Positions 1 to 63,581 of a DNA stretch of 64,000 bases are shown here, in pieces. The position numbers and the translations under genes were made by a program. Under the pieces are notes generated by a model. It made no database searches, was not told the origin of the DNA, and saw only the letters and a program-made list of their open reading frames with translations. Numbering within the stretch: the stretch's first letter is position 1; each line of letters opens with the position of its first letter. Source of the DNA: Bugulina stolonifera (Eukaryota; Bryozoa; Gymnolaemata; Cheilostomatida; Bugulidae); NCBI GenBank assembly GCA_935421135.1, contig OW285195.1, positions 9,888,391 to 9,952,390 of the forward strand, written 5' to 3'.

Positions 1-1
1 T

Positions 2-214: not shown

Positions 215-230
215 AATTATAGTGAATATC

Positions 231-656: not shown

Positions 657-743
657 AATAATATATATATATATATCAAAGAATATACTATTGGAAGGCA
701 GTTACAAATAAGTTGTCAACGGAGAAAGAAGTAGATATAAAGC

Positions 744-2051: not shown

Positions 2052-2094
2052 ACAGTAATCACAAAGTATCTATGGTTGCCGGTATGATGTAGAA

Positions 2095-2625: not shown

Positions 2626-2789
2626 TGAAATTATGTAGCTTACACGATATTCTCGCTTACTATATATGCGTTATATATGTCATTTATTTTATACACCTTG
2701 TGTTTTACTCTATACTTTCTATCATTATATACTTTCTAAGGAATACGATAAAATATACGTATTATTAATCGAAACCCAAAAACATGGTG

Positions 2790-44025: not shown

Positions 44026-44337
44026 GTAAGTACATGCTAATCTACTGTACATGTATCTCTCTAGGTAAGTACATGCTAATCTACCGTACATGTATTTCTC
44101 TAGGTAAGTACATGCTAATCTACTGTACATGTATTTCTCTAGGTAAGTACATGCTAATCTACTGTACATGTACTTCTCTAGGTAAGTACATGCTAATCTA
44201 CTGTACATGTATTTCTCTAGGTAAGTACATGCTAATCTACTCTACATGTATCTCTCTAGGTAAGTACATGCTAATCTACCGTACATGTATTTCTCTAGGT
44301 AAGTACATGCTAATCTACCGTACATATATTTCTGTTG
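44026..44337. repeat. 39-bp array of 'mini-introns' directly after ARS-B exon 8
   Basis: Eight head-to-tail 39-bp units begin exactly at the exon 8 donor. Each starts gtaagtacatgctaat and all but the last end tttctctag or tctctctag, so each has both a consensus donor and an acceptor-like end. The unit length is 13 codons with no stop in the frame continuing exon 8. Confidence 0.95.
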
Positions 44338-44363
44338 TTCAATACTTTTAAGTTTTGAGCGCT

Positions 44364-44369
44364 TTCAAC
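44364..44369. repeat. Target site duplication of E2, left copy (ttcaac)
   Basis: ttcaac immediately precedes the element start agtagtatagt and is repeated at 63576-63581 immediately after the element end. Six bases is the Polinton/Maverick hallmark length. Confidence 0.93.
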
Positions 44370-45732
44370 AGTAGTATAGTCAGTGCACTTCTAGACAGAC
44401 ACGCACTCATTGACCCCTGTTTTCAACCAATCACAAGCCGGTATTTCCGATTTCAACCAATCACAGAAGAGCACAAAAATTTTGCACACGACCTTGCCAA
44501 GGTCACCCCAAAATCCCCCCTTCTGATTGGTCGAAAAAACATTTGCACACTTGACCCCGAACTCGGCCACGACCCCTTCCCTCCCTCCTTCCCGCCCTCC
44601 TCCCCCTCCCCCACCTCCCACTCCTCCCCCACTCCCCGCCCTCGTCCCGTCCGCGCCACCGCCGTCGCCGCCGCCGCCACCGCCGCCCTCACAGCCGCCG
44701 TCGCCGCCGCCACCACCGCCCTCACAGCCGCCGCCGCCACCGCCGCCACAACCGCCACCGCCGCCACCGCCACCGCCGCCGCCGCCATCACCGTCATCAC
44801 CGCCACCCCTCCTCCGCCGCCGCCCACCCTCCCCCCCCCCCCCCGCAACCCCCACTCACCCGAACGACCGATCGTTTGAGGCGGTCAAGCCGCGTCCGCC
44901 CACGTTGCGTGCGGCGCCGACCGTACACGTGGAGGCGACGCCGGTGCCCCGTATCCACCGGGCCAAGCGACTAGGCAGCGGCCCGCCGCTTCTCCCGAGC
45001 CCTCCACTCGAAAAGCTTGTGATCTAAACGAGCGAATTCGGCCGCGCTTCGCCTACGGCTCTCATTAGCGATAAGAAGAAGTACTACGGAAGGCTTGGTT
45101 TCAGCGATAAGAAGAAGTACTACGGAAGGTTTGGTTTATGATGCGCATTGCATTGTTAATAAAGAAATGTGTAAAGTCTTGGCTATAAATATACTGATGG
45201 GAAGAAGGGTTGTTTCTATGATATACATTGTATTGACAACAAAGAACCGTGTGCATGTGTTAAGTCAGCATATATAATACATTAAATAAACTTTTCGCAA
45301 TGGTGACAATAGAATGAATAAAAGATTGTGTACACGTGTTAAAACACAATTGAAAGAATAAAAGACACATATTTAAAAGAGTATGTCATATCTGTTATTA
45401 GCAAGGAAGTCTGTGTGCATGTGTTAAGACAGTGTATATTATAAATTAAATAAACTTTTCGCAATGGTGACAATAGAATGAATAAAATATTGTGTACACG
45501 TGTTAAAACACAATTGAAAGAATAAAAGACACATATTTAAAAGAGTATGTCATATCTGTTATTAGCAAGGAAGTCTGTGTGCATGTGTTAAGACAGTGTA
45601 TATTATACATTAGATAAACTTTTCACAATAGTAGCAATAGAATAAATAAAAGGTTGTGTGCATGTGTTAAGTCAGCATTATGTAATATATTAAATAAACT
45701 TTTCACAATAGTAGCAATAGAATAAATAAAAG
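44370..45732. repeat. E2 left terminal inverted repeat
   Basis: The core (44370-45054) has CCAAT boxes (ccaatcacaagccgg, ccaatcacagaag), the palindrome gaccttgccaaggtc (44490-44504), a CCG/CCA-rich low-complexity block (44580-44840) and an inner GC-rich segment ending gaattcggccgcgcttcgcc. Homology to the right end resumes about 45497-45732, after about 440 bp absent from the right copy. Long open frames on both strands of the CCG block are compositional, not genes. Confidence 0.88.
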
Positions 45733-46160
45733 ATTGAGTGTATGTGTTAAGTCAGCATTATGTAATACATTAAATACACTTTTTACAACACTAGCAATAG
45801 AATGAATAAAAAAGCTACATATGTAAAGGAGTATGTCATAGCTATTGTTAGCAAGAAAAGTCTGTGTACATGTGTTAAGGGCAGCATATATAATACATTA
45901 AATAAACTTTTCACAATAGTAGCAATAGAATAAATAAAGATTGTGTACACATGTTGAAATATCATTATAATATGATTTAAACACAATTGAAAGAATAAAA
46001 GACACATATGTAAAGGAGTATGTCATAGCTATTATAGCAAGAGACAGCTGTGTGCATGTGTTAAGTCAGCACATATAATACATTAAATAAACTTTTTACA
46101 ATAGTAGCAATAGAATGTATAAAAGGATGTGTATAAGTGTTAGAATACCATTATATAATA
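45055..46160. repeat. Subterminal tandem repeats of E2 (about 165-180 bp units)
   Basis: Five to six degenerate units contain cattaaataaacttttcgca, caatagaatgaataaaaga, ttgtgtacacgtgttaaaac and gagtatgtcatatctgttat in order. The right end of E2 has about one and a half units in inverted orientation. Each unit carries several AATAAA words on the plus strand. No gene is evident. Confidence 0.85.
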
Positions 46161-46297
46161 ATTTAAAAAAATAATTTTAAAAAATCCTCACTGATTTGCT
46201 ATCACATAAAAGTAAATGCAGAGGGAATGAGACACTATAGAGAGAGAGTGGGAGAAAGAGAGTGGGAGAAAAAAGAAAAAAAACTAAAGAAAGATGA

Positions 46298-49190
46298 TTA
46301 GAGCTTTTCTTCACTGACTCGAAGGTAAGCTTCAGCTTGTGCTATTACCTCTCTGTGATACCCATTCTTCTTGAGATGAAAAATGGCAGAGCGGTAATAC
46401 TCAACTGCTCCAGAGAAAAAAGATGGGGGGAGTCTGCTTCGATCAACTAGTTCACTGACAGTCTCCTCTTCTATGGGGGTAATAGTGGTGGGGGTATTAA
46501 GATTGAGTTCAGACGAACAAGAAGGAGATTGCGAGCTAAGTAGCTCTCTTCCAAAAGAAAGAGAGGGTGAAGCTAAAGAAAAGGAAGAAGTGGTAGTAGT
46601 AGAAGTAGTAATAAAAGTAGGTATTGAAAGACTAGTAATTGTATTATTAGATCTTCCAAGAGAAAAAGAGGGTGAATCTAAGAAAAAGAGTGGAGCAGGT
46701 GAAGAGGTGGGAGTAGAAGTAGGTATCGAAACAGTGGTAACTGTATCATCATATCTTTCAGGAGAATGAGAGGGTGAATGTGAAGAAAAGAGTGGGGGAA
46801 AAGAAGCAGTAGAAGGAGTGGTAGTAATGGTAGTAGTAATAGTAGTAGTTGTAAGAGAAGAAGTAGAGGTGGTAATGTCTCCATTAGTAAGAGAGTTACT
46901 GATGGAAGAAGCATCTGAATCAATATGATGGTGAGAAGGGAGAGGAAATTGTGAAGAGCACACCCCAGACTTTACAGATCTTTCAGGAGAATGAGAGGGT
47001 GAATGTGAAGAAAAGAGTGGAGGAAAAGAAGTAGTAGAAGGAGTAGTAGTAATAGTAGTAGTTGTAAGAGAAGAAGTAGAGATGGTAATGTCTCCATTAG
47101 TAAGAGAGTTACTGATGGAAGAAGCATCTGAATCAAAATGATGGTGAGAAGGGAGAGGAAATTGTGAAGAGCACACCCCAGACTTTAAAGAGAATGGAGT
47201 AGTAGACATCCCCTTAAAGAAGGGAGGGTATACTACCCCACCAACAGTTGTTGGAGTGTATGCGGGGATGAGTATTTTGGAAGGTGGAGAGTGACCAGTG
47301 ACCCTTTGCAAAAAGGATATGGTCTTTTTTAATGAATAGATATCGGTTAGAAAGCGTGTGTTGAATGAGATGTGTCGGTGACAGGGCTTTCCATCAATAT
47401 GATGATTAGATGGAAAGTTGTAGTGTCTATTCATCCCCTCATCATCTACTGTTATGTGATAGCAAAAACAGATTCGGAGCAAAAAATGTTGTTGAATGTG
47501 GACACCTCGTCGGTGCCCAACATTCTTATTGCATAAAAAGCAGGGGTCGTCCGATTCAAATGGCTTTGTTAGTGACATCTCCAGTCTTCTTTTTGTCTCA
47601 TCACTAACAAAGACATAGAATCTTAGACCCCCCTTACATATCGACTTTGCTCTGAGTCCTAAAAAAGAAAGAAAATAACAAGAATAAGTGAGAGAGAACA
47701 TATGACTTACTTGTAAATCAGAAAAAAAAAAAAAAAAAAAAGATTCTAAATATACAAATAGATACTAGATCATTCTTACCTATCTCGAACCCATCTACTC
47801 CCCCACATCCTTCAAATAACGCAATTTCTTCTTCCCCTAGTTCTGTTTCTTTTTCATTCTATAATGTAAATAAAATGTGCAGAGACTAATTAACAAACTA
47901 CATTAACATAGTTATTTGTAATATATGATTTTTGAGGAATTTGATGAAAAAACTAGCACTCTAAGTACTAAGCAAGTCTACTAAAGCCTGTCTATTTACT
48001 CACATAAAGAGAAATACATCATTAACATAAGAAAACCAGTTGTAATTTATGTTATATTTTTTCACATAAGAAAAGAAAAAAAAGTGTCTTATTGATAAAA
48101 ATATTACATAAGAAAGAAAGTGCAATACTTATAATAAAAATATCACTAATCTTTAACATCTTAGACATGGTAAGAGACTTATAGAATTAGAGAAAATCAT
48201 ACTATGGCTAATTAACATCTGGTTTTAAAAAGGAAGTAGTCTCTTTTGACATTCTAGACATGGTAAGAGGCTTATAGTATAAAAAAGTACATCATCATTA
48301 TGTGTAACTAACATGTACTTCTGAAGAAATGTCAGTAATCTCCTTTGACATCTTAGAAACCCAACACCATAGTGGATTGAAGGTGTAATGCATGTGTGAA
48401 CAAATAAGATAATAGACTAACCATTTCTGGAGATGGGATTCTTTTCCTCGAGATTCGTCTTCTGTCTTCCGAATCGTACGTAATCATATACTTCATACCT
48501 TTCTTTGATGTTTTAATTTTTCTTATATATTTCTTTCTTTGATATTTAGATGTAGAAGCCTGTAAGTATATGTAGAGTAATAAACATATACCAAAGCATG
48601 AGTCAAGTAGATGGAACTACTAATGCAACATAGTTACTAAAGAAAGAAACACTACAGTGGTATAACCACTTATAATAAAGTTTCTAAGCTCTGGTCACAC
48701 TGATTGTAGTATAGACAGAGCAGATCTCTACACACATGCTCTCATGTTGAGAATCAAAACAGTTTAATATATAAGCTTACAACGTTTTTAAGCCCTGGAC
48801 ATACCAAAGGAGAATTATAAGTAGTATAGTCAGTGCACTTCTAGACAGACACGCACTCATTGACCCCTGTTTTCAACCAATCACAAGCCGGTATTTCCGA
48901 TTTCAACCAATCACAGAAGAGCACAAAAATTTTGCACACGACCTTGCCAAGGTCACCCCAAAATCCCCCCTTCTGATTGGTCGAAAAAACATTTGCACAC
49001 TTGACCCCGAACCCGGCCACGACCCCTTCCCTTCCTCCTTCCCACCCTCCTCCCCTCCCCCTCCCCCACCTCCCACTCCTCCCCCCTCCCCGCCACCGCC
49101 CTCGTCCCGTCCGCGCCACCGCCGTCGCCGCCGCCGCCACCGCCGCCCTCACCACCGCCGTCGCCGCCGCCACCACCACCGCCCTCACCA

Positions 49191-49221
<31 letters not shown>

Positions 49222-52200
49222 CGCCACCACCACCACCGCCGCCACCACCACCACCGCCACCGCCGCCGCCGCCGCCACCACCACCACCACCACCGCCGCC
49301 GCCGCCGCCGCCGCCGCCATCACCGTCATCACCGCCACCCCTCCTCCACCGCCGCCCACCCTCCCCCCCGCAACCCCCACTCACCCGAACGACCAATCGT
49401 TTGAGGCGGTCAAGCCGCGTCCGCCCACGTTGCGTGCGGCGCCGACCGTACACGTGGAGGCGACGCCGGTGCCCCGTATCCACCGGGCCAAGCGACTAGG
49501 CAGCGGCCCGCCGCCCATTCCGAGTTCCACTGGGGTGGGACTATAATGTAATATATTAAATTGTTTAGCCTCCCTATAAAAATATATAGTAGTAGGGTGT
49601 GAGTTATTTTTTAGCTTGATAGCATTTTATACAATAAACACTTCACAATTGCTGCCAATTACTCCATTTAACACTAACCTTATGTTCTACTTGTTGACAT
49701 CTCTGATCAGGCACTGACTAGTAGGTAGCTGTCTCTGTTTACTCTCACTCTGTTGACTAGAGGCTGATTGTTCATACTGCTAGAGTGAGAAACTTATACC
49801 TTAAATAGTAGTATTCAGTGGGCGGAGTCTAACCATTTCCCCACCCCGATGTGAATCCGAAGCCTCCCGATGTGAATCCGAAGCCTCCCGATGCACCCCG
49901 ATGTGAATCCGAAGCCTCCCGATGCACCCCGATGTGAATCCGAAGCCTCCCGATGCACCCCGATGTGAATCCGAAGCCTCCCGATGCACCCCGATGTGAA
50001 TCCGAAGCCTCCCGATGCATCCCGATGTGATTCCGAAGCTTCCCGATGTGATTCCGAAGCTTCCCGATGCATCCCGATGTGAATCCGACGCTTCCCGATG
50101 CATCCCGATGTGATTCCGAAGCTTCCCGATGCATCCCGATGTGATTCCGAAGCTTCCCGATGCATCCCGATGCATCCCGATGTGATTCCGAAGCTTCCCG
50201 ATGCATCCCGATGTGTCAATTCACATCGGGATGCATCGGGATGCATCGGGAAGCTTCGGAATCACATCGGGATGCATCGGGAAGCTTCGGAATCACATCG
50301 GGATGCATCGGGAAGCTTCGGATTCACATCGGGATGCATCGGGAAGCTTCGGAATCACATCGGGATGCATCGGGAAGCTTCGGAATCACATCGGGATGCA
50401 TCGGGAAGCTTCGGATTCACATCGGGATGCATCGGGATGCATCGGGAAGCTTCGGAATCACATCGGGATGCATCGGAAGGCTTCGGATTCACATCGGGAT
50501 GCATCGGGAGGCTTCGGATTCACATCGGAAGGCTTCGGATTCACATCGGGTCACATTGGGATTGGATAAAAAAAGGGAGGAGTCAAGAAATGAGCAGTTG
50601 TATAAAGGGAGAGTGGGATCACAGTCTCAGCATTCAAAGTTCACCACATCACTACTGTACAGCTACACTACTACAATAGTACATTATCAATGGATACTGA
50701 CAACATAGTACAAAACCAAGAAGAGTTATTTGCGGGCTTAACGGACTCACAAATGGATGGAATTATTGAGGAAGAAGAGTGCAGTCAGAAGAGGAAAGAA
50801 GAGGTGGATGCGTTAAAAGAGGCACGGAAGAAGGGGAAAATAATAGGAGTGGGGAGTCCTGCCCGAAAGGATCTTTCTAACATGGTGGACTCTCCGTCCT
50901 CCCCGGAGCGGGCCTCGGATAGGGGCGAGACCACAACAACCCATGGATGAGTATTATTCCAAGATAGAAAAGATGCAGCTTTCTTCAGTAGTATTGTTTT
51001 ATTACGAAGATAAATAGAGAAAAAATAAAAGAATCAAGAATCAAGCAGAAATCTAAAAAGCAAAGAAAAAAAAAAAAGAATGCAGGTAAGATAAAAACTA
51101 TTGGTCTCTTTTTTTTTTTTTTTTTTTTTTTAGTTATAGTAGTATAAAAACGAATTATAAGTAAGGTGAAGTATTTCTCTCTAGTCAAAGTGAAAAGGTG
51201 AAAAAAGCATAATATTGTTTACATGCGTTGTGAGTGGGAAAGTATTATTTCTTTTATTATAGTATAAACGTTGAAATAGAGCTCTTATAGAATGATCTCG
51301 AACTCTTCCTTCTACTCTGCTTAGCCGTGTAATTATTCCCTCCATACTCCACCCTCGAGCTCGAAGGAGACAGAACAAGATGCAGTAGTCTCCACACACG
51401 TTAGTACTCTCTTCTTGTAGACACTCTCCATTCCATACTATTGGTATTCCCCATTGTTGTAACATCTTACCCACATCAGGATAAATAGAAGGGGGGAGAC
51501 CATAGGAGTCGAAATACTCTATTTCTTTTCCATTCGAAAAAACAGAGATCCAATGCTCGCCACTTTTCTCACTTGTTTGAGTATTGAAAACAAAAGATCC
51601 AGATGGGGAGAAGGAGTCTAAGAAGTGATCCCTTGGCATAACTCCTCTAAAGGAGGTTGATGAGAGTTTATCATCAGATAGAATATTCGAGATTGAGAAT
51701 GTATCCATTTTTTTTTTTACATCATCCCGGCTACCATAGATACTTCGTGATTTGCATTCAAGTAGATAATGTCATCTTTTTCTTCGTATACAAACAGTCC
51801 AAGTGTATTTTGAGTTTGATTAGCAAATGCTAGATTAATAGATAGACTCCCATTTGATAACAAGTGAAAGTTGTCATCACACAAATCTCCTGAAATGTCA
51901 AAGGCGTAGAGAGCAGCGCAGGACTTGTATTTGCTAGGGGAGATCTCATTCCCTGTGTCAGCATCGGATGTATTTGTGACAGTGAACAAATTCATGAATT
52001 CACGAGCAAACTTTCCACTTGCAAAATTTGGTTCATATCTTCGGGTCACCGGTGTTCCATCAATTAGTAATTCTAATGAACTTAGATTGTTATGTCCAAA
52101 TTTGAAGGGATTTTGCTTATACGTTCCACTCTTTGCAGTATGGTTGACTAGTCCGACAAAGACTCTGTTTGGCTTCTGTCCCGCTTGATCAAAGTTTACT

Positions 52201-58200: not shown

Positions 58201-59161
58201 TCGCTCGCGATTTCTCCTTCCCATCCTCAAAGCGACATCTTCTTGCCCCATCCTTTAATATGTTCAATACTCTATGATAGAGTTCATTCTTTGAACCTTC
58301 CCCACCAGGTTCATTATCCAGATATAGTAAGAAGTGAGTGTTAAAAGTGGCCTCCGCTCCCACACCAGTTTCATCCCAGTTTCTATCTTCAATAATCTTC
58401 TCAACCTCCACTCTACACCAGGTTGACAACTCTGCATTCCTAAGAAGGAGTAAGGGAGAAGAAACGGATGCGTTTTTTGTTTCTACCATAGATGAAAATC
58501 TTGACCTAGCTCCTGTTAAGTCTTCATAACAAAGTGCCATTTTCCTCAACTTTTCCTCTCCTATCTTAAAAGGGATATTCATAGAGAGTGAAAGTGTTCT
58601 AAAATAGATGGCAAGCTCTACCACTAAGGAATTATGAGCGAGTCTGTCAACCCAATACCACATCCATGGACTATTCGCTTCTTCGATATTACTTTTGATC
58701 ATATAATCCCATACAGACTTCGGGAGGACTTCCTTTAAAAGTACATATCTCCCCGCTGCTCCTTTGGTGAGAAAAGACATGTTTGCTATGACTAAGTCTT
58801 CTTTGTATTAATACTATCATCAGTCAAACTTATCTTTTATAGTCCCACCCCAGTGGAACTCGGAATGGGCGGCGGGCCGCTGCCTAGTCGCTTGGCCCGG
58901 TGGATACGGGGCACCGGCGTCGCCTCCACGTGTACGGTCGGCGCCGCACGCAACGTGGGCGGACGCGGCTTGACCGCCTCAAACGATTGGTCGTTCGGGT
59001 GAGTGGGGGTTGCGGGGGGGAGGGTGGGCGGCGGTGGAGGAGGGGTGGCGGTGATGACGGTGATGGCGGCGGCGGCGGCGGCGGCGGCGGTGGTGGTGGT
59101 GGTGGTGGCGGCGGCGGCGGCGGTGGCGGTGGTGGTGGTGGCGGCGGTGGTGGTGGTGGCG

Positions 59162-59192
<31 letters not shown>

Positions 59193-59980
59193 TGGTGAGG
59201 GCGGTGGTGGTGGCGGCGGCGACGGCGGTGGTGAGGGCGGCGGTGGCGGCGGCGGCGACGGCGGTGGCGCGGACGGGACGAGGGCGGTGGCGGGGAGGGG
59301 GGAGGAGTGGGAGGTGGGGGAGGGGGAGGGGAGGAGGGTGGGAAGGAGGAAGGGAAGGGGTCGTGGCCGGGTTCGGGGTCAAGTGTGCAAATGTTTTTTC
59401 GACCAATCAGAAGGGGGGATTTTGGGGTGACCTTGGCAAGGTCGTGTGCAAAATTTTTGTGCTCTTCTGTGATTGGTTGAAATCGGAAATACCGGCTTGT
59501 GATTGGTTGAAAACAGGGGTCAATGAGTGCGTGTCTGTCTAGAAGTGCACTGACTATACTACTATTATACCACTACTAAAATATAATTAGCCCCAATGTT
59601 AACTCAAATGAGTAAGTTCATATTAAAATACATATTAAAATAGCTAGGATGTACTAGTATAGCCAGTACAAGTGGTAATAAACTGTTTTGATACTTATTA
59701 CACTACTAGTGGTATAACTACTCATATTGAAAACAAATCTCACAACATATAAAGCTTCTAAGCTCCGGTCACACAAATTGTAGTATAGACAGATCAGATC
59801 TCTACATACTTGCTCTCATGTTGAGAATCAAAACAGTTTAATACATAAGCTTACAAAGTTTCTAAGCTCTGGTCATACCAAGGGAGTATTATATCACTAC
59901 TAAAATAGAATTAGTCCCAATGTTAACTCAAATGAGTAAATTCATACTAAAATACATATTAAAATAAGTTTACTCACCAT
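46298..59980 (-). CDS. E2 cargo gene 1: spliced 526-aa nuclear/zinc-binding-like Ser/Thr-rich protein
   Basis: Four exons on the minus strand: 59980-59978 (the ATG itself, donor gtgagtaaac), 48559-48422, 47858-47780, 47658-46298. The coding sum is 1581 nt, exactly 527 codons, and every border is GT/AG. The N-terminus is basic and NLS-like (YQRKKYIRKIKTSKKG, RRRISRKR). A Cys/His cluster follows (CFLCNKNVGHRRGVH ... ICFCYH ... CHRH), suggesting metal binding. The middle is Ser/Thr-rich with two about 70-residue tandem copies starting KSGVCSSQFPLPSHHH. The tail is YYRSAIFHLKKNGYHREVIA. E3 sits inside intron 1, enlarging it from about 670 bp to 11.4 kb. CCAAT (60108) and TATA-like cataaaag (60089-60096, minus strand) lie upstream, next to the 31-bp array. 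Family not recognised. Confidence 0.7.
48687..48813. repeat. Direct-repeat partner of 59757-59887 (duplicated unit split by E3)
   Basis: About 125 bases (taagctctggtcacac, gtagtatagacaga, ctctcatgttgagaatcaaa, aacagtttaatatataagct) match 59757-59887 with about 8 percent differences. After E3 the sequence ccactactaaaatataatta (from 59570) matches tcactactaaaatagaatta (from 59894). So two tandem copies of a roughly 324-bp unit existed, and E3 inserted in the first. Confidence 0.88.
48814..48819. repeat. Target site duplication of E3, left copy (attata)
   Basis: attata precedes the element start agtagtatagt at 48820 and is repeated at 59564-59569 after the element end. Confidence 0.93.
48820..49546. 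repeat. E3 left terminal inverted repeat (727 bp)
   Basis: It starts agtagtatagtcagtgcact and ends gtgggactataa. Long open frames inside it recur with identical translations in the right copy (58837-59563), so identity is essentially complete. It contains two CCAAT boxes near 48877-48912, the palindrome at 48940-48954 and a (CCG/CCA)n block at 49080-49330. Confidence 0.95.
48940..48954. promoter_or_regulatory. Conserved 15-bp palindrome gaccttgccaaggtc in the TIR
   Basis: The 15-mer (palindromic apart from its central base) is present at 3212-3226, 44490-44504, 48940-48954, 59429-59443 and 63441-63455, i.e. in all five TIR copies including the divergent E1. It amounts to two AAGGTC half-sites facing outward. 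It may bind a transposition, replication or host transcription factor. Confidence 0.7.
49547..49843. other. E3 spacer between TIR and repeat array
   Basis: AT-rich, non-coding as far as I can see. Near the array there is a GC-box-like ccgccca on the minus strand (about 49819-49825) and a tatttaagg-like word. A leftward promoter would have no visible gene to serve. Confidence 0.45.
49844..50550. repeat. E3 31-bp repeat array arranged as one large inverted repeat
   Basis: The left half reads cccgatgtgattccgaagct / tcccgatgcat and the right half is its reverse complement, turning over at about 50217-50224 (gatgtgtcaattcacatc). The unit is 31 bp (cacatcgggatgcatcggga + agcttcggaat), and the words CGATG/CATCG recur about every 10 bp. 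Outermost units have cct/agg variants in place of ctt/aag, symmetrically on both sides. Long open frames across the array, with a 31-residue period, are by-products. Confidence 0.93.
50601..50606 (+). promoter_or_regulatory. TATA box (with upstream CCAAT-type boxes) for the 86-aa gene
   Basis: tataaa at 50601-50606 lies about 90 bases upstream of the ATG at 50690. Two ATTGG words at 50555-50565 sit between it and the end of the array. Confidence 0.6.
50690..50950 (+). CDS. E3 86-aa charged protein, only plus-strand gene of E3
   Basis: An acidic N-terminal half (QEELFAGLTDSQMDGIIEEEE) is followed by a Lys/Arg-rich helix-prone stretch (KRKEEVDALKEARKKGK) and a Ser/Pro tail (SPARKDLSNMVDSPSSPERA). 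There is no recognisable domain. It sits where E2 has its IkappaB-like gene: array, CCAAT, TATA, then ORF. This position suggests an early or regulatory gene transcribed away from the virion genes. Plus-strand AATAAA words follow near 51020. Real expression is likely from the promoter layout, but unproven. Confidence 0.55.
   Translation: MDTDNIVQNQEELFAGLTDSQMDGIIEEEECSQKRKEEVDALKEARKKGKIIGVGSPARKDLSNMVDSPSSPERASDRGETTTTHG
50951..51180. terminator. Convergent 3' ends with AATAAA signals and A/T homopolymers
   Basis: The region lies between the 3' end of the 86-aa gene and the stop of the protease gene. Plus-strand aataaa occurs near 51025 and minus-strand AATAAA at 51003-50998, serving opposite transcripts. 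An A-run at 51066-51077 and a T-run at 51110-51132 may be hairpin-forming. Confidence 0.5.
51181..51708 (-). CDS. Adenain-like virion maturation protease
   Basis: 175 residues. His52 (GEHWISVF), Asp67 (YFDSYGLPP), Gln98 (ECLQEE) and Cys105 (NVCGDYC) form the adenovirus-protease/Ulp1-type active site. The E1 copy at 2095-2625 has the same residues at identical positions. In related elements the enzyme processes capsid and core precursors during assembly. The gene lies 8 bases downstream of the capsid stop, last in the virion gene block. Confidence 0.9.
   Translation of the reverse strand: MDTFSISNILSDDKLSSTSFRGVMPRDHFLDSFSPSGSFVFNTQTSEKSGEHWISVFSNGKEIEYFDSYGLPPSIYPDVGKMLQQWGIPIVWNGECLQEESTNVCGDYCILFCLLRARGWSMEGIITRLSRVEGRVRDHSIRALFQRLYYNKRNNTFPLTTHVNNIMLFSPFHFD
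51717..53063 (-). CDS. Major capsid protein (F54H12.2-like, double jelly-roll family)
   Basis: 448 residues, starting MSVTHRAISLSKVSEDSPDT. Recognised by the family blocks SFDLFATPPTHTSVLRGEW, LYTDLSRSYLHTTVKVSKAD, HSLFSSATVQLAGQDVE, NRVFVGLVNHTAKSGTY and a C-terminal FDISGDLCDDNFHLLSNGSL. Proteins of this family, often annotated F54H12.2-like in invertebrate genomes, are the presumed hexon-type shell proteins of Polinton/adintovirus-like elements. The frame is intact, in contrast to E1. A TATA-like aaatatataatcc lies at about 53147-53159 on the minus strand, about 85-95 bases upstream. Confidence 0.88.
   Translation of the reverse strand: MSVTHRAISLSKVSEDSPDTVDSSFDLFATPPTHTSVLRGEWVPLAPVTDSPDGTIEFNIPPADELYTDLSRSYLHTTVKVSKADGSVLPAEEQLKVVPGDNFMHSLFSSATVQLAGQDVEYEPNYGHRAYVENLLNYGKDAKSTYMKVGSGWMEDEGTGEDYDGIPPEVVEKRKKLIATSKEMSFYGRPRLSMFSQGRLIPPGVRSRLTLQRAIPQMALLAETDNPAGGAKISITKTELWIRRVQANPALQKAQMDVWVVQQESIKLPIDRIKTHFHVIPAGHQSVRVNFDQAGQKPNRVFVGLVNHTAKSGTYKQNPFKFGHNNLSSLELLIDGTPVTRRYEPNFASGKFAREFMNLFTVTNTSDADTGNEISPSKYKSCAALYAFDISGDLCDDNFHLLSNGSLSINLAFANQTQNTLGLFVYEEKDDIIYLNANHEVSMVAGMM
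53169..53579 (-). CDS. pX-like small basic virion protein
   Basis: 136 residues from MAPRIVPYFP. The ATG at 53579 is one base after the penton stop and aligns with the E1 start; an ATG five codons earlier (53594) overlaps the penton gene and is less likely. The N-terminal part (DESGEMYEDYYANQVGEGMS) is acidic. The middle has SLFSGLARGVLPMLKNGAK and KTIGKKLLTTGASVLGDVIK, a hydrophobic plus lysine-rich segment. The C-terminus is KKKRKGRK. The predicted role, DNA-binding core or cement protein, rests on comparison with adenovirus pX-like proteins of adintoviruses. Confidence 0.7.
   Translation of the reverse strand: MAPRIVPYFPDESGEMYEDYYANQVGEGMSVYRGKPIMTGNGIGSLFSGLARGVLPMLKNGAKTIGKKLLTTGASVLGDVIKGENFKSSAAKRFREAGGDLLGDVEDELREPPAKRARVSQKSTKKKRKGRKTVFD
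53581..54327 (-). CDS. Penton/minor capsid-like protein
   Basis: 248 residues. The N-terminus FNVTLTSNVRIGG is followed by FITKLAKTLKLHSSQWEVGL and DIQYPASWRN, a typical start of the conserved single jelly-roll candidate in these elements. The C-terminal part has LYVYSSVVSPRHVGDSLVPL and DLIEVDIRRDDGERVSFRSG. The E1 remnant at 2-214 matches its last 70 residues. The gene lies directly upstream of the pX-like gene. Assignment as penton follows its family context in Polintons/adintoviruses; no structure can be checked here. Confidence 0.75.
   Translation of the reverse strand: MAFNVTLTSNVRIGGSDTNTNAHFITKLAKTLKLHSSQWEVGLLDIQYPASWRNVEDGYVVVTNTKDGVKRKCEIRSGRYASMGELLSEINRILINYDLEKVVSFYYDSLRNETFLMLREQEHSVMMSRDVAWVLGFEPDVEYAAEINRSQNPPDINAGFTSLYVYSSVVSPRHVGDSLVPLLRTVPITESERNSTVFFEFSNVQYSPVSNTSTDLIEVDIRRDDGERVSFRSGKVVLTVRFRPRGEK
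54382..55452 (-). CDS. Retroviral-type integrase with C-terminal chromodomain
   Basis: 356 residues. The rve-type catalytic core shows QADLVDV (Asp77), IQTDKGKEF (Asp137) and LVERFNRTLRG (Glu172), the D,D,E triad with 34 residues between the last two. I see no N-terminal HHCC zinc motif. Residues about 314-356 (FRVEKVIRKRRRRGKEESFV ... WSGYPSSFNSWID) form a chromodomain-like module. In chromointegrases this module steers insertion to marked chromatin. The protein should insert the element at 6-bp staggered cuts, matching the duplications seen. Its start overlaps the preceding gene by 13 bases. Confidence 0.93.
   Translation of the reverse strand: MDDIDEGLRDIYFSPPQPPSFGGKRKLVLASPPGINENDVEKWLRSQDAYTLHRPIRMKFTRRKTFVSGIGEQLQADLVDVRAHKDSNDGVTFLLTCIDAFSRKAWVFPLHSKSGLEVSNALISLFENESFRQIQTDKGKEFLNRRVSEVLKKYGVSHFTSENEIIKAALVERFNRTLRGKIHRLLTYRGDGRYLEDVEDLVQGYNNSFNRSIGMKPIEVDYDNQEEVWVRLNEFSPKRWLKKTRVKYSPGDHVRISMARSSFERGFTPNWSTEIFTIKAVKAHTSPPVYTLEDLNKEGVDGTFYAQELQHVNLPEIFRVEKVIRKRRRRGKEESFVKWSGYPSSFNSWIDSSQFV
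55440..56024 (-). CDS. 194-aa charged accessory protein (KYLLMDKHTYE type)
   Basis: The N-terminus MDEGEMSLKFSKKYLLMDKH contains the K-[YF]-[VL]-L-x-[DP]-x-x-x-[YF] type signature seen near integrase genes in Polinton-like elements. The centre is helical and possibly coiled-coil (SQLEQHAHKMNKFLKELERS), and the C-terminal 80 residues are Arg/Ser/Pro-rich and very basic. It overlaps the integrase start by 13 bases and the 132-aa gene's end by 14. Its biochemical role is unknown; a virion or DNA-associated role is possible. Confidence 0.6.
   Translation of the reverse strand: MDEGEMSLKFSKKYLLMDKHTYESMNSRNNKKEGEHLPSLSTNGDLLLAEKSRKDVISNLKNSDTDIYSQLEQHAHKMNKFLKELERSRHPQQELYNTLEGINTRFNEMHTWRQREEEAQERGREKKRDDEKRRSGSRSPLPHPYRRETKPERSEAGARWSGKGENRSPIKTRSRRKLPKTPLASNSKTERWMI
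56011..56409 (-). CDS. 132-aa conserved virion-associated protein candidate
   Basis: A basic N-terminus is followed by a helical middle (ALVECARNVLLGNVHLTTAQ, LNSLRRHRRAIEDL). It ends in a Gly/Leu-rich hydrophobic tail, QRGGFLGLLLKPLASLLGGV. The block NVLLGNV..LT..Q...L followed by the K-[KL]-L-[IL]-[LQ]-[QR]-x-G-G-F-L tail is a familiar conserved small protein of Polinton-like elements. The hydrophobic tail may interact with membranes. It overlaps the 194-aa gene by 14 bases and follows the ATPase stop by 32 bases. Confidence 0.62.
   Translation of the reverse strand: MDSKRAHPSSSMRYINSPEYSPRLRRNALSIYALTKASATIRDSTIAEANKDLILALVECARNVLLGNVHLTTAQLNSLRRHRRAIEDLTNSRTSVRQKKLILQRGGFLGLLLKPLASLLGGVLGGLGGGRR
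56442..57101 (-). CDS. FtsK/HerA-type (A32-like) genome packaging ATPase
   Basis: 219 residues. Walker A GPTGSGKT at residues 21-28, Walker B RWLIIDDLM with Asp92-Asp93, and a sensor-like SVFFLLQNLFP with Gln124. The layout fits the A32-like packaging ATPases of Polintons and nucleocytoplasmic viruses, which pump DNA into preformed capsids. Its presence with capsid, penton and protease genes argues for real particle formation. The first 98 bases overlap, in another frame, the end of the membrane protein gene upstream. Confidence 0.92.
   Translation of the reverse strand: MRPHQEIDLRLQSPFTALVCGPTGSGKTELLFSLIRRVDEIASPTPVEIIYCYGVWQRRFEDYKDKVRFHSGLIDVEMDIERDGKNRWLIIDDLMGEVGGKETTNAIFTKFSHHLNISVFFLLQNLFPKDNRTVSINSQYFFLFKNPRDGMSVTNLAKQAFPQSTRAVQEAFSDATRKPHSFLFLNLRQETPEWARLIGNFASEHSPMTVYIPNTLEYK
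57004..57411 (-). CDS. 135-aa single-pass membrane protein overlapping the ATPase gene
   Basis: An acidic N-terminal domain of about 40 residues is followed by a basic stop-transfer patch (RSNKRKKF), one clear transmembrane segment FTFYIIIILFILSCSSL (about residues 46-62), and a Ser/Asn-rich C-terminal domain. The last 32 codons lie inside the ATPase reading frame, so this stretch is read in two frames if both proteins are made full length. No family is recognised. Short membrane proteins are common in membrane-associated DNA viruses, but that is context only. Confidence 0.5.
   Translation of the reverse strand: MSKQEVVCRNENYEDVADGLLDEVVAISAEEGRERIGERSNKRKKFTFYIIIILFILSCSSLSPSVYTYLSDREPPNGKDKGVLKQGHFLKTNTTLLATQLDQHASTPRNRSSLAESLHSSSLWSNREWKNGTTI
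57452..58780 (-). CDS. 442-aa protein with duplicated segment and C-terminal coiled coil; unknown function
   Basis: The N-terminal domain (about 1-215) is hydrophobic-helical (RYVLLKEVLPKSVWDYMIKS). There follow two copies of a roughly 40-60-residue segment (GELDPSKNGLEVIRSPSPGD, GELDSSKNGLEEIRSPSPGE) at about 219-310, then a long charged coiled coil (about 310-395, QQRIDARKERRTNRIAFLEK) and an acidic tail. It is not a DNA polymerase and lacks Walker motifs. The position is first after the right TIR. A TATA-like ctataaaagata overlaps the TIR edge (about 58831-58842), about 55 bases upstream of the ATG. It could be an early or scaffold protein. Confidence 0.6.
   Translation of the reverse strand: MSFLTKGAAGRYVLLKEVLPKSVWDYMIKSNIEEANSPWMWYWVDRLAHNSLVVELAIYFRTLSLSMNIPFKIGEEKLRKMALCYEDLTGARSRFSSMVETKNASVSSPLLLLRNAELSTWCRVEVEKIIEDRNWDETGVGAEATFNTHFLLYLDNEPGGEGSKNELYHRVLNILKDGARRCRFEDGKEKSRAKRSYNEESIPGLILSRGNTLYAGRLFGELDPSKNGLEVIRSPSPGDARLEVRETSTGETNQVMIEEVEMCDIGELDSSKNGLEEIRSPSPGEARVEVRETSTGENKQIMIEERTHVETKEEVEMCDKREQEIRKIEQELALKKVELAGALGWKEALEMQQRIDARKERRTNRIAFLEKKLTEERMEKERLMMEIERLQKEEEEEKMDSVSIIDHIIPHLANKLDDNDAKAEGEDSKLPQWVPTGESNDE
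58837..59563. repeat. E3 right terminal inverted repeat (727 bp)
   Basis: Reverse complement of 48820-49546. It ends gcactgactatactact at 59563 and is followed by attata. Its inner edge supplies the TATA-like ctataaaa upstream of the 442-aa gene. Confidence 0.95.
59564..59569. repeat. Target site duplication of E3, right copy (attata)
   Basis: Matches 48814-48819. The paralogous unoccupied site at 59888-59893 also reads attata, in gagtattatatcactac. Confidence 0.93.
59570..59977. other. Rest of E2 cargo gene 1 intron 1, with the second tandem unit
   Basis: Non-coding. Contains the complete second copy of the roughly 324-bp unit that E3 split in its first copy, then the donor gtgagtaaac of the tiny first coding exon (minus strand). 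Confidence 0.8.
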
Positions 59981-60088
59981 ATTAATTGTTGAGTGATGTT
60001 TATTCAGAGAAATTAGTAAATATCCACAGAGTTGCAAGTCTTTACTAGGTGGTTGAGTGGTAATGATAAAAATCCTCTCTCACGCTTG

Positions 60089-60112
60089 CTTTTATGGAAA
60101 TCTCTGTCCAAT
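60089..60112 (-). promoter_or_regulatory. Leftward promoter of E2 cargo gene 1
   Basis: Minus-strand cataaaag (60096-60089) with a CCAAT-type box 12 bases further upstream (60108-60112, ccaat on the plus strand), about 110 bases before the ATG. It abuts the left end of the 31-bp array. Confidence 0.5.
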
Positions 60113-60150
60113 CAGAAGTGATTTGCCTTTTTTTAGTCTGATTTATTGCA

Positions 60151-60982
60151 TCCCGATGTGATTCGATGTAACCCGATGTAACCCGATGTAACCCGATGTA
60201 ACCCGATGTAACCCGATGTAACCCGATGTGTTTTCGACCTCCCCCGATGTGTTTTCGACCTCCCCCGATGTGATTCGATGTGTCTCGATGTGTTTTCGAC
60301 CTCCCCCGATGTGATTCGATGTGTCCCGATGTGTTTTCGACCTTCCCCGATGTGACCCGATGTAACCCGATGTAACCCGATGTAACCCGATGTGTTTTTT
60401 ACGTCCCCCGATGTGTTTTCGACCTCCCCCGATGTGATTCGATGTGTCTCGATGTGTTTTTGACCTTCCCCGATGTAACCCGATGTGTTTTTGACCTCCC
60501 CCGATGTGATTCGATGTGTCCCGATGTGTTTTCGACCTCCCCCGATGTGATTCGATGTGTTTTCGACCTCCCCCGATGTGATTCGATGTGTTTTCGACCT
60601 CCCCCGATGTGATTCGATGTGTTTTCGACCTCCCCCGATGTGTTTTCGACCTCCCCCGATGTGATTCGATGTGTTTTCGACCTCCCCCGATGTGATTCGA
60701 TGTGTTTTCGACCTCCCCCGATGTGTTTTCGACCTCCCCCGATGTGATTCGATGTGTTTTCGACCTCCCCCGATGTGATTCGATGTGTCCCGATGTGTTT
60801 TCGACCTCCCCCGATGTGATTCGATGTGTCCCGATGTGTCTTCGACCTCCCCCGATGTGATTCGATGTGTCCCAATGTGTTTTCGACCTCCCCCGATGTG
60901 TTTTCGACCTTTCCCGATGTGTTTCGATGTTTCCCTATGTGTTTTCGATCTTTCCCGATGTGATTCGATGCACTCTGATGTG
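60151..60982. repeat. E2 31-bp repeat array between divergent promoters
   Basis: About 27 units; the core unit is cccccgatgtgattcgatgt + gttttcgacct (31 bp), with 10-11-bp subunits built on CGATGTG. Variants have runs of cccgatgtaa (10-bp steps) near 60170-60225 and 60355-60390. It shares the 13-mer cccgatgtgattc with the E3 array. CCAAT/TATA promoters lie on both sides, reading outward. Open frames in it are compositional. Confidence 0.92.
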
Positions 60983-61014
60983 TTTCCAATGCACTCCAAT
61001 GTATATGCTGTTAG

Positions 61015-61054
61015 CCAATCAGCTTTATTTGTATCTTTTTATTCACTATATAAA
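61015..61054 (+). promoter_or_regulatory. Rightward promoter of the IkappaB-like gene
   Basis: ccaat at 61015-61019 and tatataaa at 61047-61054, about 90 bases before the ATG at 61141. The layout is the same as for the 86-aa gene of E3. Confidence 0.65.
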
Positions 61055-61140
61055 GAGAGGTGGAAACAGTAGTTTAGTTAACTCTTTCTAGCTCCAGTCT
61101 GTTCTTAATAGAAATTAAAGAAGGTTAGCACACAAATAGC

Positions 61141-62584
61141 ATGGAAAGTGGATATGGATCAAGCGAGTATAGCAACAAGCTAATGACTCCTATAAACCAA
61201 GAGCTGATGAAGGTAACAGTGGAAAGATGTACAGAACAAAGCAAGTATGAGAATAAAGACTTATTTGAGGGGGTGTCTGAGCTCTTTCTCCAAAAAAGCT
61301 TACCTCTAGACTGGCAGAAATGGGATCCTTTAACCGATATTCGTAATAAGCTTAGCACACAGTTACTAGAAGAAATTCGTTCTATCTTTTGGGAGCAAGA
61401 TGGAAAGGATGAAGAGTTGTAAGTTATACATACTTCCAACTATTTTTTTTTTTTGTTTAGTATTGTCTTTTATGATCAAAATAAAATATGATAGACAAAT
61501 TTCCCATATAACTACCTCTCAACTATGTGAAAAACAAATATCATGCTAAATGATGTAGTGAGGTACTAGAAGCAGCCCGAGATAGAGATGAGAGAGCCGT
61601 TGCACTCGCGGTATTTGTTGCGAGGAGTCACAAACAACTGAATACAAAGAATGCGAATCGGCAGACGTTACTTCACCTAACTGTACAGTCTTATTGTTCG
61701 GATTCACTAATTCGCCTCATCATCACAAGGGGAGCGGATGGAGCAATAGCCGATGCTTGGGGTTAGTGTTTTATAGCACCAATGTTTGCATGCATTGCTT
61801 GTTAAAAAATAAAGTGTTGCAAAACTTGTAACAATTCGGTACTTATCTATATTGCTAATGTTTATTTGGAAGGTGACACCCCCCTTCACATTGCTGCACG
61901 TCTGGGTAGAGCTAAGGTTATTCATGCTCTAACCACAAGTTTGACCAGAGCAGAAGTAAAGCATCCATACTTCAGAGTTCCTTACAAATAACTTCCCCAA
62001 GACAATGTACAGAGCTACAATCATGATGGAAGGAGTGTAGTCCACCTCATTGTTGAAACAGCGCATAGCAGCAAGCATAGAGAGGCACTAAAGGTACTAA
62101 AAAAAAATACTCGGGCTGACTTAGATATGAGGGTAAGTGAATACATTACAGTGGAATAAAAGTAGAGTAGATCGAATTGATAAGTTAGATGGGGAGTTTA
62201 ATTCTATTCTTCTGTTTGATATTATAGCGAATGGGAGATGGATACGCCCCATCTCACATTGCCATAGAGAATGAAGACTACGAATGTCTACATACATGTC
62301 TAAGATTGGGAGCTGATTCTGAAGTTCGTAACTACAAAAGTGAAACCCCTCAACAACTAGCTCACCTCTACAAATCAGCAGATATGGTAAGGGACCAACA
62401 ACATAAAGAAGTATAGGTTTCTTGCTTTGCCCACCTTGAGTGATATTCGTCTGAGTAAAAAACTAAAATCATCTTGTAGGTAAGACTGTGTCAAGAGTTT
62501 GGAGCTGGAGCATATCAATTAGAGTATGCTGAGACCGAAGTCGTAAACATTATAGCTCCTACGACTTCTGATGAAGATGAGTAA
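61141..62584 (+). CDS. E2 cargo gene 2: spliced IkappaB-like ankyrin-repeat protein, with one in-frame stop
   Basis: Five exons: 61141-61418, 61559-61761, 61873-62132, 62228-62386, 62480-62584. All have GT/AG borders; the sum is 1005 nt, exactly 335 codons. The N-terminus MESGYGSSEYS resembles the IkappaB phosphodegron (D/E-S-G-x-x-S). Ankyrin repeats follow: TLLHLTVQ...SLIRLIITRGAD; DTPLHIAARLGRAKVIHAL with a long post-repeat insertion; SVVHLIVETAHS; and APSHIAIENEDYECLHTCLR. The tail is acidic (TTSDEDE). This order resembles IkappaB/Cactus proteins, which hold NF-kappaB in the cytoplasm. A TAA at 61989-61991 in exon 3 breaks the otherwise consistent frame, so the copy may be inactive or truncated. 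A generic ankyrin protein remains possible. Confidence 0.7.
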
Positions 62585-62600
62585 TAAGTACCTAAACTCC

Positions 62601-63131
62601 TCTTTTATTTATTCTATTGCTACTATTGTGAAAAGTTTATTTAATATATTACATAATGCTGACTTAACACATGCACACAACCTTTTATTTATTCTATTGC
62701 TACTATTGTGAAAAGTTTATCTAATGTATAATATACACTGTCTTAACACATGCACACAGACTTTCTTGCTAATAATAGATATGACATACTCTTTTAAATA
62801 TGTGTCTTTTATTCTTTCAATTGTGTTTTAACACAGGCGAAGCGCGGCCGAATTCGCTCGTTTAGATCACAAGCTTTTCGAGTGGAGGGCTCGGGAGAAG
62901 CGGCGGGCCGCTGCCTAGTCGCTTGGCCCGGTGGATACGGGGCACCGGCGTCGCCTCCATGTGTACGGTCGGCGCCGCACGCAACGTGGGCGGACGCGGC
63001 TTGACCGCCTCAAACGATCGGTCGTTCGGGTGAGTGGGGGTTGCGGGGGGGAGGGTGGGCGGCGGCGGAGGAGGGGTGGCGGTGATGACGGTGATGGCGG
63101 CGGCGGCGGTGGCGGCGGCGGCGGCGGCAGT

Positions 63132-63162
<31 letters not shown>

Positions 63163-63575
63163 GTGGCGGTTGTGGCGGCGGTGGCGGCGGCGGCTGTGAG
63201 GGCGGTGAGGGCGGTGAGGGCGGTGGTGGCGGCGGCGACGGCGGCTGTGAGGGCGGCGGTGGCGGCGGCGGCGACGGCGGTGGCGCGGACGGGACGAGGG
63301 CGGTGGCGGGGAGTGGGGGAGGAGTGGGAGGTGGGGGAGGGGGAGGAGGGCGGGAAGGAGGGAGGGAAGGGGTCGTGGCCGGGTTCGGGGTCAAGTGTGC
63401 AAATGTTTTTTCGACCAATCAGAAGGGGGGATTTTGGGGTGACCTTGGCAAGGTCGTGTGCAAAATTTTTGTGCTCTTCTGTGATTGGTTGAAATCGGAA
63501 ATACCGGCTTGTGATTGGTTGAAAACAGGGGTCAATGAGTGCGTGTCTGTCTAGAAGTGCACTGACTATACTACT
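62601..63575. repeat. E2 right terminal inverted repeat
   Basis: The core 62835-63575 mirrors 44370-45054. 62601-62834 mirrors 45497-45732, so about 440 bp of the left copy is missing here. The GCC/GGC block differs in length and sequence from the left copy and from E3, so E2's repeats have diverged more than E3's. It begins 17 bases after the stop of cargo gene 2. Confidence 0.88.
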
Positions 63576-63581
63576 TTCAAC
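63576..63581. repeat. Target site duplication of E2, right copy (ttcaac)
   Basis: Identical to 44364-44369, directly after the element end ctatactact. Confidence 0.93.

What the first reader, a model, noticed from the sequence alone, without database searches (positions are those of the whole stretch)
44370..63575. Two-part system: a capsid-coding Polinton nested in a capsid-less cargo element with the same termini
E2 minus E3 (about 8.46 kb) has Polinton-type ends and a 6-bp duplication but none of the mobility or virion genes. It carries two spliced genes, an IkappaB-like protein and a nuclear/zinc-binding-like protein. E3 supplies integrase, ATPase, protease and capsid proteins but no such cargo. 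Shared TIRs, a shared TIR palindrome and a shared 31-bp array motif suggest E2 uses the machinery of E3-like elements. A virus-derived particle delivering host-modulating genes would be reminiscent of polydnavirus-type arrangements. Termini and gene content are seen; helper/satellite behaviour is inference.
Basis: partly seen in the sequence, partly recalled or inferred. Interest (0 to 1): 0.93.

Follow-up and report, generated by a model that had tools for sequence, protein, structure and literature searches.

The report
Capsid-less partner of a Polinton-like virus
A genome that is likely an animal's carries about 150 copies of an 8–10 kb mobile element without capsid or integrase genes, whose ends match those of about 200 capsid-coding virus-like elements; the small element likely moves with its relative's integrase and carries a gene predicted to dampen the host's NF-kB immune signalling.

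Summary
E3 (48820-59563; TSD ATTATA) sits inside E2 (44370-63575; TSD TTCAAC); all 12 E2 loci fetched have the empty site. E2 without E3 is a real repeat family: probes count 153 cargo and 196 capsid (E3) copies, and about 354 end pairs. Of 46 exact-end pairs on two contigs, 21 are E2, 21 E3, 4 carry neither probe, none both. Every element with both ends read (11 E2, 11 E3) has a 6-bp duplication. The outer 200 bases are as alike between E2 and E3 (99.7%) as within each. Both carry an array of CCCGATGTG units at 10/21-bp spacing before a TATA box. E2 encodes an ankyrin gene with IkB/Bcl-3-like exons, open in 9 of 11 fully read copies (broken in the window), and a gene without known relatives; the zinc-binding call is unsupported. 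E3 lacks PolB, as does its relative E1, so the helper is itself incomplete. Best reading: a capsid-less partner (satellite) likely mobilised in trans by E3-type integrase. Packaging and any bipartite dependence are untested. The polydnavirus analogy is weak: copies are dispersed, recent and partly decayed.

The parts
44364..44369 (.). E2 left target-site duplication TTCAAC
   Evidence: matches 63576-63581
44370..45054 (+). E2 left TIR; outer 200 nt indistinguishable from E3 ends; GC-rich microsatellite inside
45249..46213 (.). E2 subterminal repeats (about 164-bp units), partly mirrored at 62601-62834
   Evidence: D7, D8, I9
46298..47656 (-). Main exon of E2 left cargo gene (about 450 codons), Ser/Thr-rich; no family or homologue found; right edge approximate
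47721..48540 (-). Region with candidate upstream exons of the left cargo gene (open pieces 47721-47858 and near 48434-48523); inferred by eye only
48814..48819 (.). E3 left target-site duplication ATTATA
48820..49546 (+). E3 left TIR, 727 nt
   Evidence: I1
49826..50570 (.). E3 array of CCCGATGTG-type units, 10/21/31-bp periodic, turning orientation near 50219; TATA box 50601-50607 follows (by eye)
50690..50949 (+). E3 small gene (86 aa) behind the array; related to a gene of a capsid-less element with E1 ends (41% over 58 aa)
51181..51708 (-). E3 probable cysteine protease (adenain-like), weak matches only
   Evidence: Peptidase_C5 E 0.1; S273R protease E 0.086; E1 homologue Peptidase_C5 E 0.0018, below Pfam's cut-off
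51717..53063 (-). E3 major capsid protein, predicted double jelly roll
   Evidence: 196 genomic copies by probe
53169..53594 (-). E3 virion-cluster ORF, 141 aa; E1 has a 151-aa counterpart (by eye)
53581..54327 (-). E3 248-aa ORF, probable minor capsid protein (by position); E1 counterpart 69% identical over 177 aa
54382..55452 (-). E3 RVE integrase with chromodomain, open
   Evidence: rve 2e-11, Chromo 1.2e-6
56442..57101 (-). E3 A32/FtsK-like packaging ATPase
   Evidence: Pox_A32 1.3e-6, above cut-off
57452..58780 (-). E3 442-aa ORF of unknown function; E1 counterpart 30% identical over 247 aa; no polymerase match
58837..59563 (-). E3 right TIR
59564..59569 (.). E3 right target-site duplication ATTATA
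60140..61000 (.). E2 array of CCCGATGTG units between the two divergent cargo genes; TATA box 61047-61054 (by eye)
61141..62584 (+). E2 IkB-like ankyrin gene, five exons about 61141-61418, 61560-61763, 61873-62133, 62228-62387, 62479-62584 (edges by eye); window copy broken in exon 3, intact copies exist
62835..63575 (-). E2 right TIR
63576..63581 (.). E2 right target-site duplication TTCAAC

Best explanation
E2 is a high-copy mobile element that carries two cargo genes but no integrase, capsid, protease or ATPase gene, and it is likely mobilised in trans by the integrase of the capsid-coding E3 elements, whose ends it shares. Shown: E2 and E3 are separate interspersed families with the same terminal 200 nt, 6-bp duplications and a shared periodic array. 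Inferred: E3 integrase acts on E2 ends; the array is a shared promoter or replication switch that co-activates both; E2's ankyrin protein would bind the host Rel factor and damp NF-kB signalling during activation. A DNA polymerase must come from the host or from another element, because neither E2 nor E3 shows one. Packaging of E2 in E3 particles is plausible (8-10 kb against 10.7 kb) but untested.
For: Counts: TIR 46-mer at most 2 mismatches 353+355 (control 0), E3 MCP 49-mer 81+115, cargo exon 49-mer 78+75, left-gene 49-mer 65+59. Mutually exclusive content: 21 E2, 21 E3, 4 neither, 0 both of 46 exact-end pairs on contigs C1-C2. TSD match in 11 of 11 E2 (two more E2 had only one end fetched) and 11 of 11 E3; outer 200 nt identity E2-E2 99.67, E3-E3 99.82, E2-E3 99.74%. 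Both recent: 0.32% mean pairwise difference in the main left exon of 15 E2 copies; MCP identical in 8 of 8 fetched and 100% in the 40 best. Shared array motif: 29 in the E2 array, 23 in the E3 array, 1 elsewhere in the window, 0 in L067 and L068. Cargo exons: exon 2 hits Bcl-3 chain residues 34-76 (2.5e-6, second of 24) and exon 4 hits Bcl-3 residues 197-225 of 241 (2.5e-7). Rel-domain exon matches exist in the genome. Five exons open in 9 of 11 fully read copies; exons differ less than introns, 0.41 against 1.12%.
Against: Nothing here shows movement, expression or packaging. N/S counts show no constraint: left exon 22:3 (expected 2.4:1), right exons 16:7 plus one stop (sum over). E3 has no PolB, so it is not a fully autonomous helper. 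IkB identity is uncertain: MIB1 beats Bcl-3 for exon 2, 23 other ankyrin chains beat it for exon 4, and no IkB member is among the hits shown for the two exon-3 pieces; Pfam ankyrin scores stay below cut-off. 4 of 46 end pairs carry neither probe. No strict kB site in either array, though none occurs in the whole window, so the test is weak.
Confidence: 0.78

Rival explanations
1. Bipartite virus (compatible with trans-mobilisation): E2 and E3 are two segments of one virus; E3 carries virion and integration genes, E2 carries host-control genes that E3 likely needs, and both are predicted to be packaged in E3-type particles.
For: Comparable copy numbers (153 and 196 by probe) and partition of 42 of 46 end-sharing pairs into two exclusive classes; shared ends and array; cargo genes mostly open. 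A second lineage shows a similar split: 9 of 18 pairs with E1 ends lack the E1 MCP probe, and the one read in part carries an E1-type array and two genes that are not virion genes as far as seen, one of them related to E3's small gene.
Against: No evidence that E3 needs E2; the capsid-less element with E1 ends carries other genes than E2 and is an inverted duplication, which fits a defective derivative as well; the other 8 were not read, and a missing probe is not a missing capsid gene.
Confidence: 0.22
2. Both E2 and E3 are moved by a third party with the same ends: an exogenous virus or a rare full-length element that also brings the polymerase.
For: Neither shows a PolB. E1, related to E3, is PolB-free too.
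Against: E3 has an open integrase; the two probe counts sum to 349 against about 354 end pairs; none of the PF03175 places on C1-C2 lies in a pair; the PolB element that was read has no nucleotide similarity to E1, E2 or E3.
Confidence: 0.2
3. Capture by-product (compatible with trans-mobilisation): an E3 derivative picked up genes between its ends and drifts as a non-autonomous repeat, without any role for the cargo.
For: N/S not below neutral expectation; the window copy and 2 of 11 fully read copies broken; gene capture by non-autonomous transposons is well known (recalled).
Against: All exon pieces open in 9 of 11 copies and exons differ less than introns; promoter-like TATA boxes and array.
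Confidence: 0.3
4. Polydnavirus-like domesticated delivery system run by the host.
For: Virion genes and cargo genes lie on separate elements; the E3 capsid protein's best BFVD match by E-value is a bracovirus-associated protein (25% identity, TM 0.35), and Glyptapanteles loci hold Maverick-derived genes (PMC2646287 passages).
Against: Copies dispersed over contigs C1-C11 with their own TSDs and little divergence. CatSper and Rel-domain matches speak against an insect, by the recalled distribution of CatSper. Bracovirus cargo sits in a few proviral loci.
Confidence: 0.03

Closest known systems
Polinton/Maverick elements (polintoviruses)
   Same: E3: TIRs, 6-bp TSD (recalled as Polinton-typical), RVE integrase, packaging ATPase, probable cysteine protease, double jelly-roll MCP
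   Different: E3 is 10.7 kb and shows no PolB; 15-20 kb and protein-primed PolB are given for Polintons in PMC4028283 (passages)
Non-autonomous transposons with captured genes (Pack-type elements)
   Same: E2 shares cis ends with a coding relative and carries unrelated genes
   Different: Cargo is two multi-exon genes, mostly open, with an array promoter; the coding relative is virus-like and codes for capsid
Virus satellites: virophages, P4 and PICI-like phage satellites
   Same: An element without its own virion genes that likely depends on a capsid-coding helper with shared cis sequences (as in PICI; PMC6431247 passages)
   Different: Here both partners are integrated in one eukaryotic genome; packaging is not shown; virophages have their own capsid (recalled)
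Bipartite DNA viruses, e.g. Acheta domesticus segmented densovirus (PMC10267136, search listing only)
   Same: Virion and other functions on separate elements with common ends
   Different: No evidence of mutual dependence or of particles here
Bracovirus ankyrin genes (IkB-like) of wasps
   Same: Ankyrin proteins predicted to act on NF-kB (function recalled)
   Different: Bracovirus ankyrins are predicted single-exon genes in proviral segments (PMC2646287 passages); the E2 gene has introns and is dispersed

Membership tests
Polinton/Maverick (E3) | TIRs with 6-bp TSD | tested here: met
   11 of 11
Polinton/Maverick (E3) | RVE integrase | tested here: met
   above cut-off
Polinton/Maverick (E3) | FtsK/A32-like ATPase | tested here: met
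   Pox_A32 above cut-off
Polinton/Maverick (E3) | Cysteine protease | tested here: inconclusive
   weak in E3; E1 homologue E 0.0018 but below Pfam's cut-off
Polinton/Maverick (E3) | Double jelly-roll major capsid protein | tested here: met
   Foldseek probability 1.00 to PBCV-1, Sputnik and mavirus capsid proteins (TM about 0.5-0.6, identity 9-14%); model mean pLDDT 74.7
Polinton/Maverick (E3) | Protein-primed DNA polymerase B | tested here: not met
   no such ORF and no room in E3; 11 PF03175 places in the genome, those on C1-C2 outside the pairs
Polinton/Maverick (E2) | Any Polinton core gene | tested here: not met
Non-autonomous partner of E3 | Same cis ends as a coding element, and TSDs | tested here: met
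Non-autonomous partner of E3 | Mobilised by the partner's integrase | not testable with these tools
   needs a biochemical assay
Virus satellite | Genome packaged in helper particles | not testable with these tools
   needs particle DNA
IkB family (cargo protein) | Ankyrin repeats in IkB order | tested here: inconclusive
   exons 2 and 4 match an early and a late stretch of Bcl-3; stronger hits to other ankyrin proteins exist; exon 3 gives no IkB hit among those shown
IkB family (cargo protein) | Binds Rel factor | not testable with these tools
   Rel-domain matches in the genome: three clustered on C8 (one crosses a stop) and one on C1
Polydnavirus | Cargo segments clustered in a few proviral loci | tested here: not met
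   cargo hits on all of C1-C11 with own TSDs

The most novel reading that the evidence does not exclude
E2 and E3 are the two halves of a bipartite, polymerase-less Polinton-class virus living in an animal germ line: one half builds the particle and integrates both, the other carries an NF-kB inhibitor and a second host-control gene. A second lineage (E1) has split in a like way, so the partition would be a lasting strategy.
Probability: 0.2. Interest if true: 0.93.

Novelty: new variant of a known kind. Interest (0 to 1): 0.8.

Why it matters
Polintons are thought to lie near the root of many eukaryotic DNA viruses, yet their biology in animals is little known. A genome with about 200 capsid-coding and about 150 capsid-less copies, both nearly identical and sharing ends, is a natural system in which trans-mobilisation, packaging and satellite parasitism of Polinton-class elements can be tested directly. 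It also suggests a route by which virus-class elements could spread immune-type genes.

Tried and rejected
Left cargo gene: Pfam, 5.8 billion proteins and single-sequence AlphaFold of its first 160 codons (mean pLDDT 32) gave nothing. The zinc-binding idea stays unsupported.

PolB in trans from a same-ended element: the PolB element read is a separate Polinton with its own integrase and A32 ATPase and a 388-aa ORF that may be its capsid protein (by eye only), without nucleotide similarity to E1-E3. Rejected for that element; its own ends were not identified.

Viral contigs: two scans with the capsid protein found no relative. E3 capsid homologues: seven others, 28-49% identical, unnamed.

Strict kB sites in the arrays: none (consensus recalled), so a kB-driven feedback was dropped; the window holds none at all.

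Purifying selection: mixed. Exons differ less than introns, but N/S is not below expectation. One search used 17 rows for the left exon, of which 14 are distinct copies (L010=L031, L012=L032, L013=L025); 3 of the 14 have indels. L030 and L035 were dropped by the length filter. In one search one of 12 loci (L032) was not fully read; splice signals of the copies were not checked.

Selection of copies: the 12 E2 loci were picked from the 40 best E2-end hits, largely as pairs under 10 kb, so they lean to short intact E2. One search uses the exact-end pairs on C1-C2 among the 100 listed places, with probe places from the capped lists. The 10 E3 end pairs were picked by length and, for most, by the capsid probe. 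Pairs were formed by hand.

Host identity: one paper search on sponge and other genomes did not settle the species.

In print: the searches in the open-licence PMC library showed, in titles and abstract starts, no capsid-less partner of a Polinton; subscription papers and Repbase notes were not searchable.


Full report
What was checked. The window is G000:C9:9888391-9952390 of an unnamed 235-Mb genome. A host exon beside a PolB element matches CatSper 2 (E 5.3e-9) and Rel-domain exons are present, so the host is most likely an animal and, by the recalled distribution of CatSper, not an insect. E3 lies at 48820-59563 with identical 727-nt arms and ATTATA on both sides. E2 spans 44370-63575 with TTCAAC on both sides. 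Removing E3 and one TSD leaves 8,456 bp. The empty site is found in 12 of 12 fetched E2 loci with at most 2 substitutions and no indel, so E3 is a later insertion into a pre-existing E2.

E2 is a family of its own. The terminal 46-mer occurs 353 times forward and 355 reverse with up to 2 mismatches, against 0 for the reversed control. An E3 capsid-gene probe occurs 196 times, a cargo exon-4 probe 153 times and a left-gene probe 124 times, each with control 0. On contigs C1 and C2, 46 pairs with exact ends can be formed from the places listed: 21 hold cargo hits, 21 hold the capsid probe, 4 hold neither and 0 hold both. Nineteen of the 21 E2 lengths are 8.4-9.6 kb (others 10.1 and 15.0 kb); 16 of the 21 E3 lengths are 10.0-11.2 kb (others 8.8, 12.1, 13.6, 13.7 and 17.2 kb). 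Twelve E2-type loci were fetched; all carry cargo sequence and none gave an E3-body match. Two had only one end within the fetched 10 kb, and two hold other inserts of about 2.9 kb.

Shared ends. All 11 E2 and all 11 E3 elements with both ends read have matching 6-bp TSDs (each 11 includes the window copy). In the outer 200 nt, mean identity is 99.67% among E2 ends, 99.82% among E3 ends and 99.74% between them, so the ends cannot be told apart. Left and right ends of one element are identical over these 200 nt in 8 of 11 E2 and 9 of 11 E3. Both families spread recently: mean pairwise difference in the main left exon is 0.32% over 15 E2 copies, and the capsid gene is identical in 8 of 8 fetched E3 copies and at 100% in the 40 best hits.

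Shared array. Each element has, ahead of a plus-strand gene with a TATA box, an array built on CCCGATGTGA at 10/21/31-bp steps. The 9-mer CCCGATGTG occurs 29 times in the E2 array, 23 times in the E3 array, once elsewhere in the window and not at all in the E1-type stretches L067 and L068. In E2 the array lies between the two divergent cargo genes. The spacing, close to whole turns of the helix, suggests sites for one DNA-binding factor on one face; that factor is unknown.

Cargo. The right gene has five exons (from GT/AG edges and open frames, by eye). Two exon pieces match Pfam ankyrin repeats, below cut-off. Against solved structures, exon 2 matches Bcl-3 residues 34-76 (E 2.5e-6; only MIB1 is better) and exon 4 matches Bcl-3 residues 197-225 of 241 (E 2.5e-7, with 23 better hits to designed and other ankyrin proteins); the two exon-3 pieces show no IkB member among the hits listed. 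The order, the exon layout and the acidic tail fit an IkB-type protein; this is likely, not proven. All five exons are open in 9 of 11 fully read copies; two are broken, and the window copy has a stop in exon 3. Exons differ by 0.41% and introns by 1.12%, but N/S shows no constraint, so selection on the cargo is unresolved. The left gene has no relative in any search.

E3 and the missing polymerase. E3 has integrase with chromodomain, packaging ATPase, a probable protease, capsid and several unknown ORFs. Its capsid model (9 sequences, mean pLDDT 74.7) matches PBCV-1, Sputnik and mavirus capsid proteins. No polymerase fits in E3. E1, at the window start and completed to the left, is an 11,888-bp relative (68-71% DNA identity in aligned parts) with TSD TTTGTA, the same gene order and again no polymerase. 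PF03175 finds 11 places in the genome. The one element examined there is a different Polinton with its own ATPase and integrase and no nucleotide similarity to E1-E3. E3 is therefore Polinton-like, not a standard Polinton, and a polymerase must come from elsewhere.

A second lineage. E1 ends form 18 pairs (paired by hand); 9 of them hold no E1 capsid probe, which does not exclude a diverged capsid gene. One of these nine was read over 6.15 of 9.26 kb: it holds an E1-type array (about 80% identity to E1's) and two genes mirrored on both sides (1,901 nt at 99.7%), with no virion gene seen in the part read. One of the two is related to E3's small gene 50690 (41% over 58 aa, E 2e-7 for the single comparison; tblastx had not shown it). 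The other was found at 26 places, 23 of them outside pairs with E1 ends. Capsid-less elements with shared ends thus recur, but this case may be a defective inverted duplication, and eight pairs were not read.

Mechanism. The best-supported reading is trans-mobilisation: E2 keeps the ends (and perhaps the array) that the E3 system recognises and leaves integration to E3. Shown: ends, TSDs, copy numbers, partition of genes, recency. Inferred: the integrase as mover, the array as common switch, NF-kB damping. Not known: packaging, source of polymerase, whether E3 gains from E2. If E3 needs E2, the pair is a bipartite virus; if not, E2 is a satellite or a gene-carrying hitch-hiker. These rivals overlap with the main reading, so their odds do not sum to one.

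Known systems. Polintons are described as 15-20 kb with protein-primed PolB, integrase, ATPase and protease (PMC4028283, passages). Non-autonomous elements moved in trans are general knowledge (PMC6431247, passages). Bracovirus loci hold ankyrin genes and Maverick remnants (PMC2646287, passages), and the E3 capsid's best BFVD match by E-value is a bracovirus-associated protein, but dispersed recent insertions do not resemble a domesticated polydnavirus. EMALE virophages with nested retrotransposons (PMC8547959, passages) show layered parasitism in a protist. Eight paper searches showed no capsid-less partner of a Polinton in the titles and abstract starts listed.

Noticed in passing
window 1-3372 and L067:485-9000: E1, an 11,888-bp PolB-less relative of E3 with TSD TTTGTA, at least 592 nt of TIR at 98.5%, integrase frame broken by a stop, and its own array motif.
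   Followed up: yes
L069, L068, L070 (G000:C5:3314513-3323772): Element with E1 ends that lacks the E1 capsid probe and is an inverted duplication: two genes mirrored (1,901 nt at 99.7%) around an array.
   Followed up: partly
L037-L043, L045, L046: Separate Polinton family with PolB open frames up to 1,381 aa; six loci 97.8-99.8% alike over the parts fetched (L042 and L043 are one place).
   Followed up: partly
window 51717-53063: E3 capsid protein's best BFVD match by E-value is an uncharacterised protein of Cotesia sesamiae bracovirus (25% identity, low TM), perhaps a Maverick remnant.
   Followed up: no
window 46298-47656: E2 may fall into subfamilies: the left-gene probe is exact at 47 places, and most of the listed one-mismatch places share the same variant.
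   Followed up: no
L053 and L055: Two E3 copies about 100 kb apart share the TSD GCCATG; chance or local duplication.
   Followed up: no
window 43959-44351: 39-bp tandem array read as an open frame just outside the E2 left end.
   Followed up: no
window 44583-44850 and the other three TIRs: CCGCC-type microsatellite in the TIRs, variable in length between copies; it creates long spurious ORFs.
   Followed up: partly
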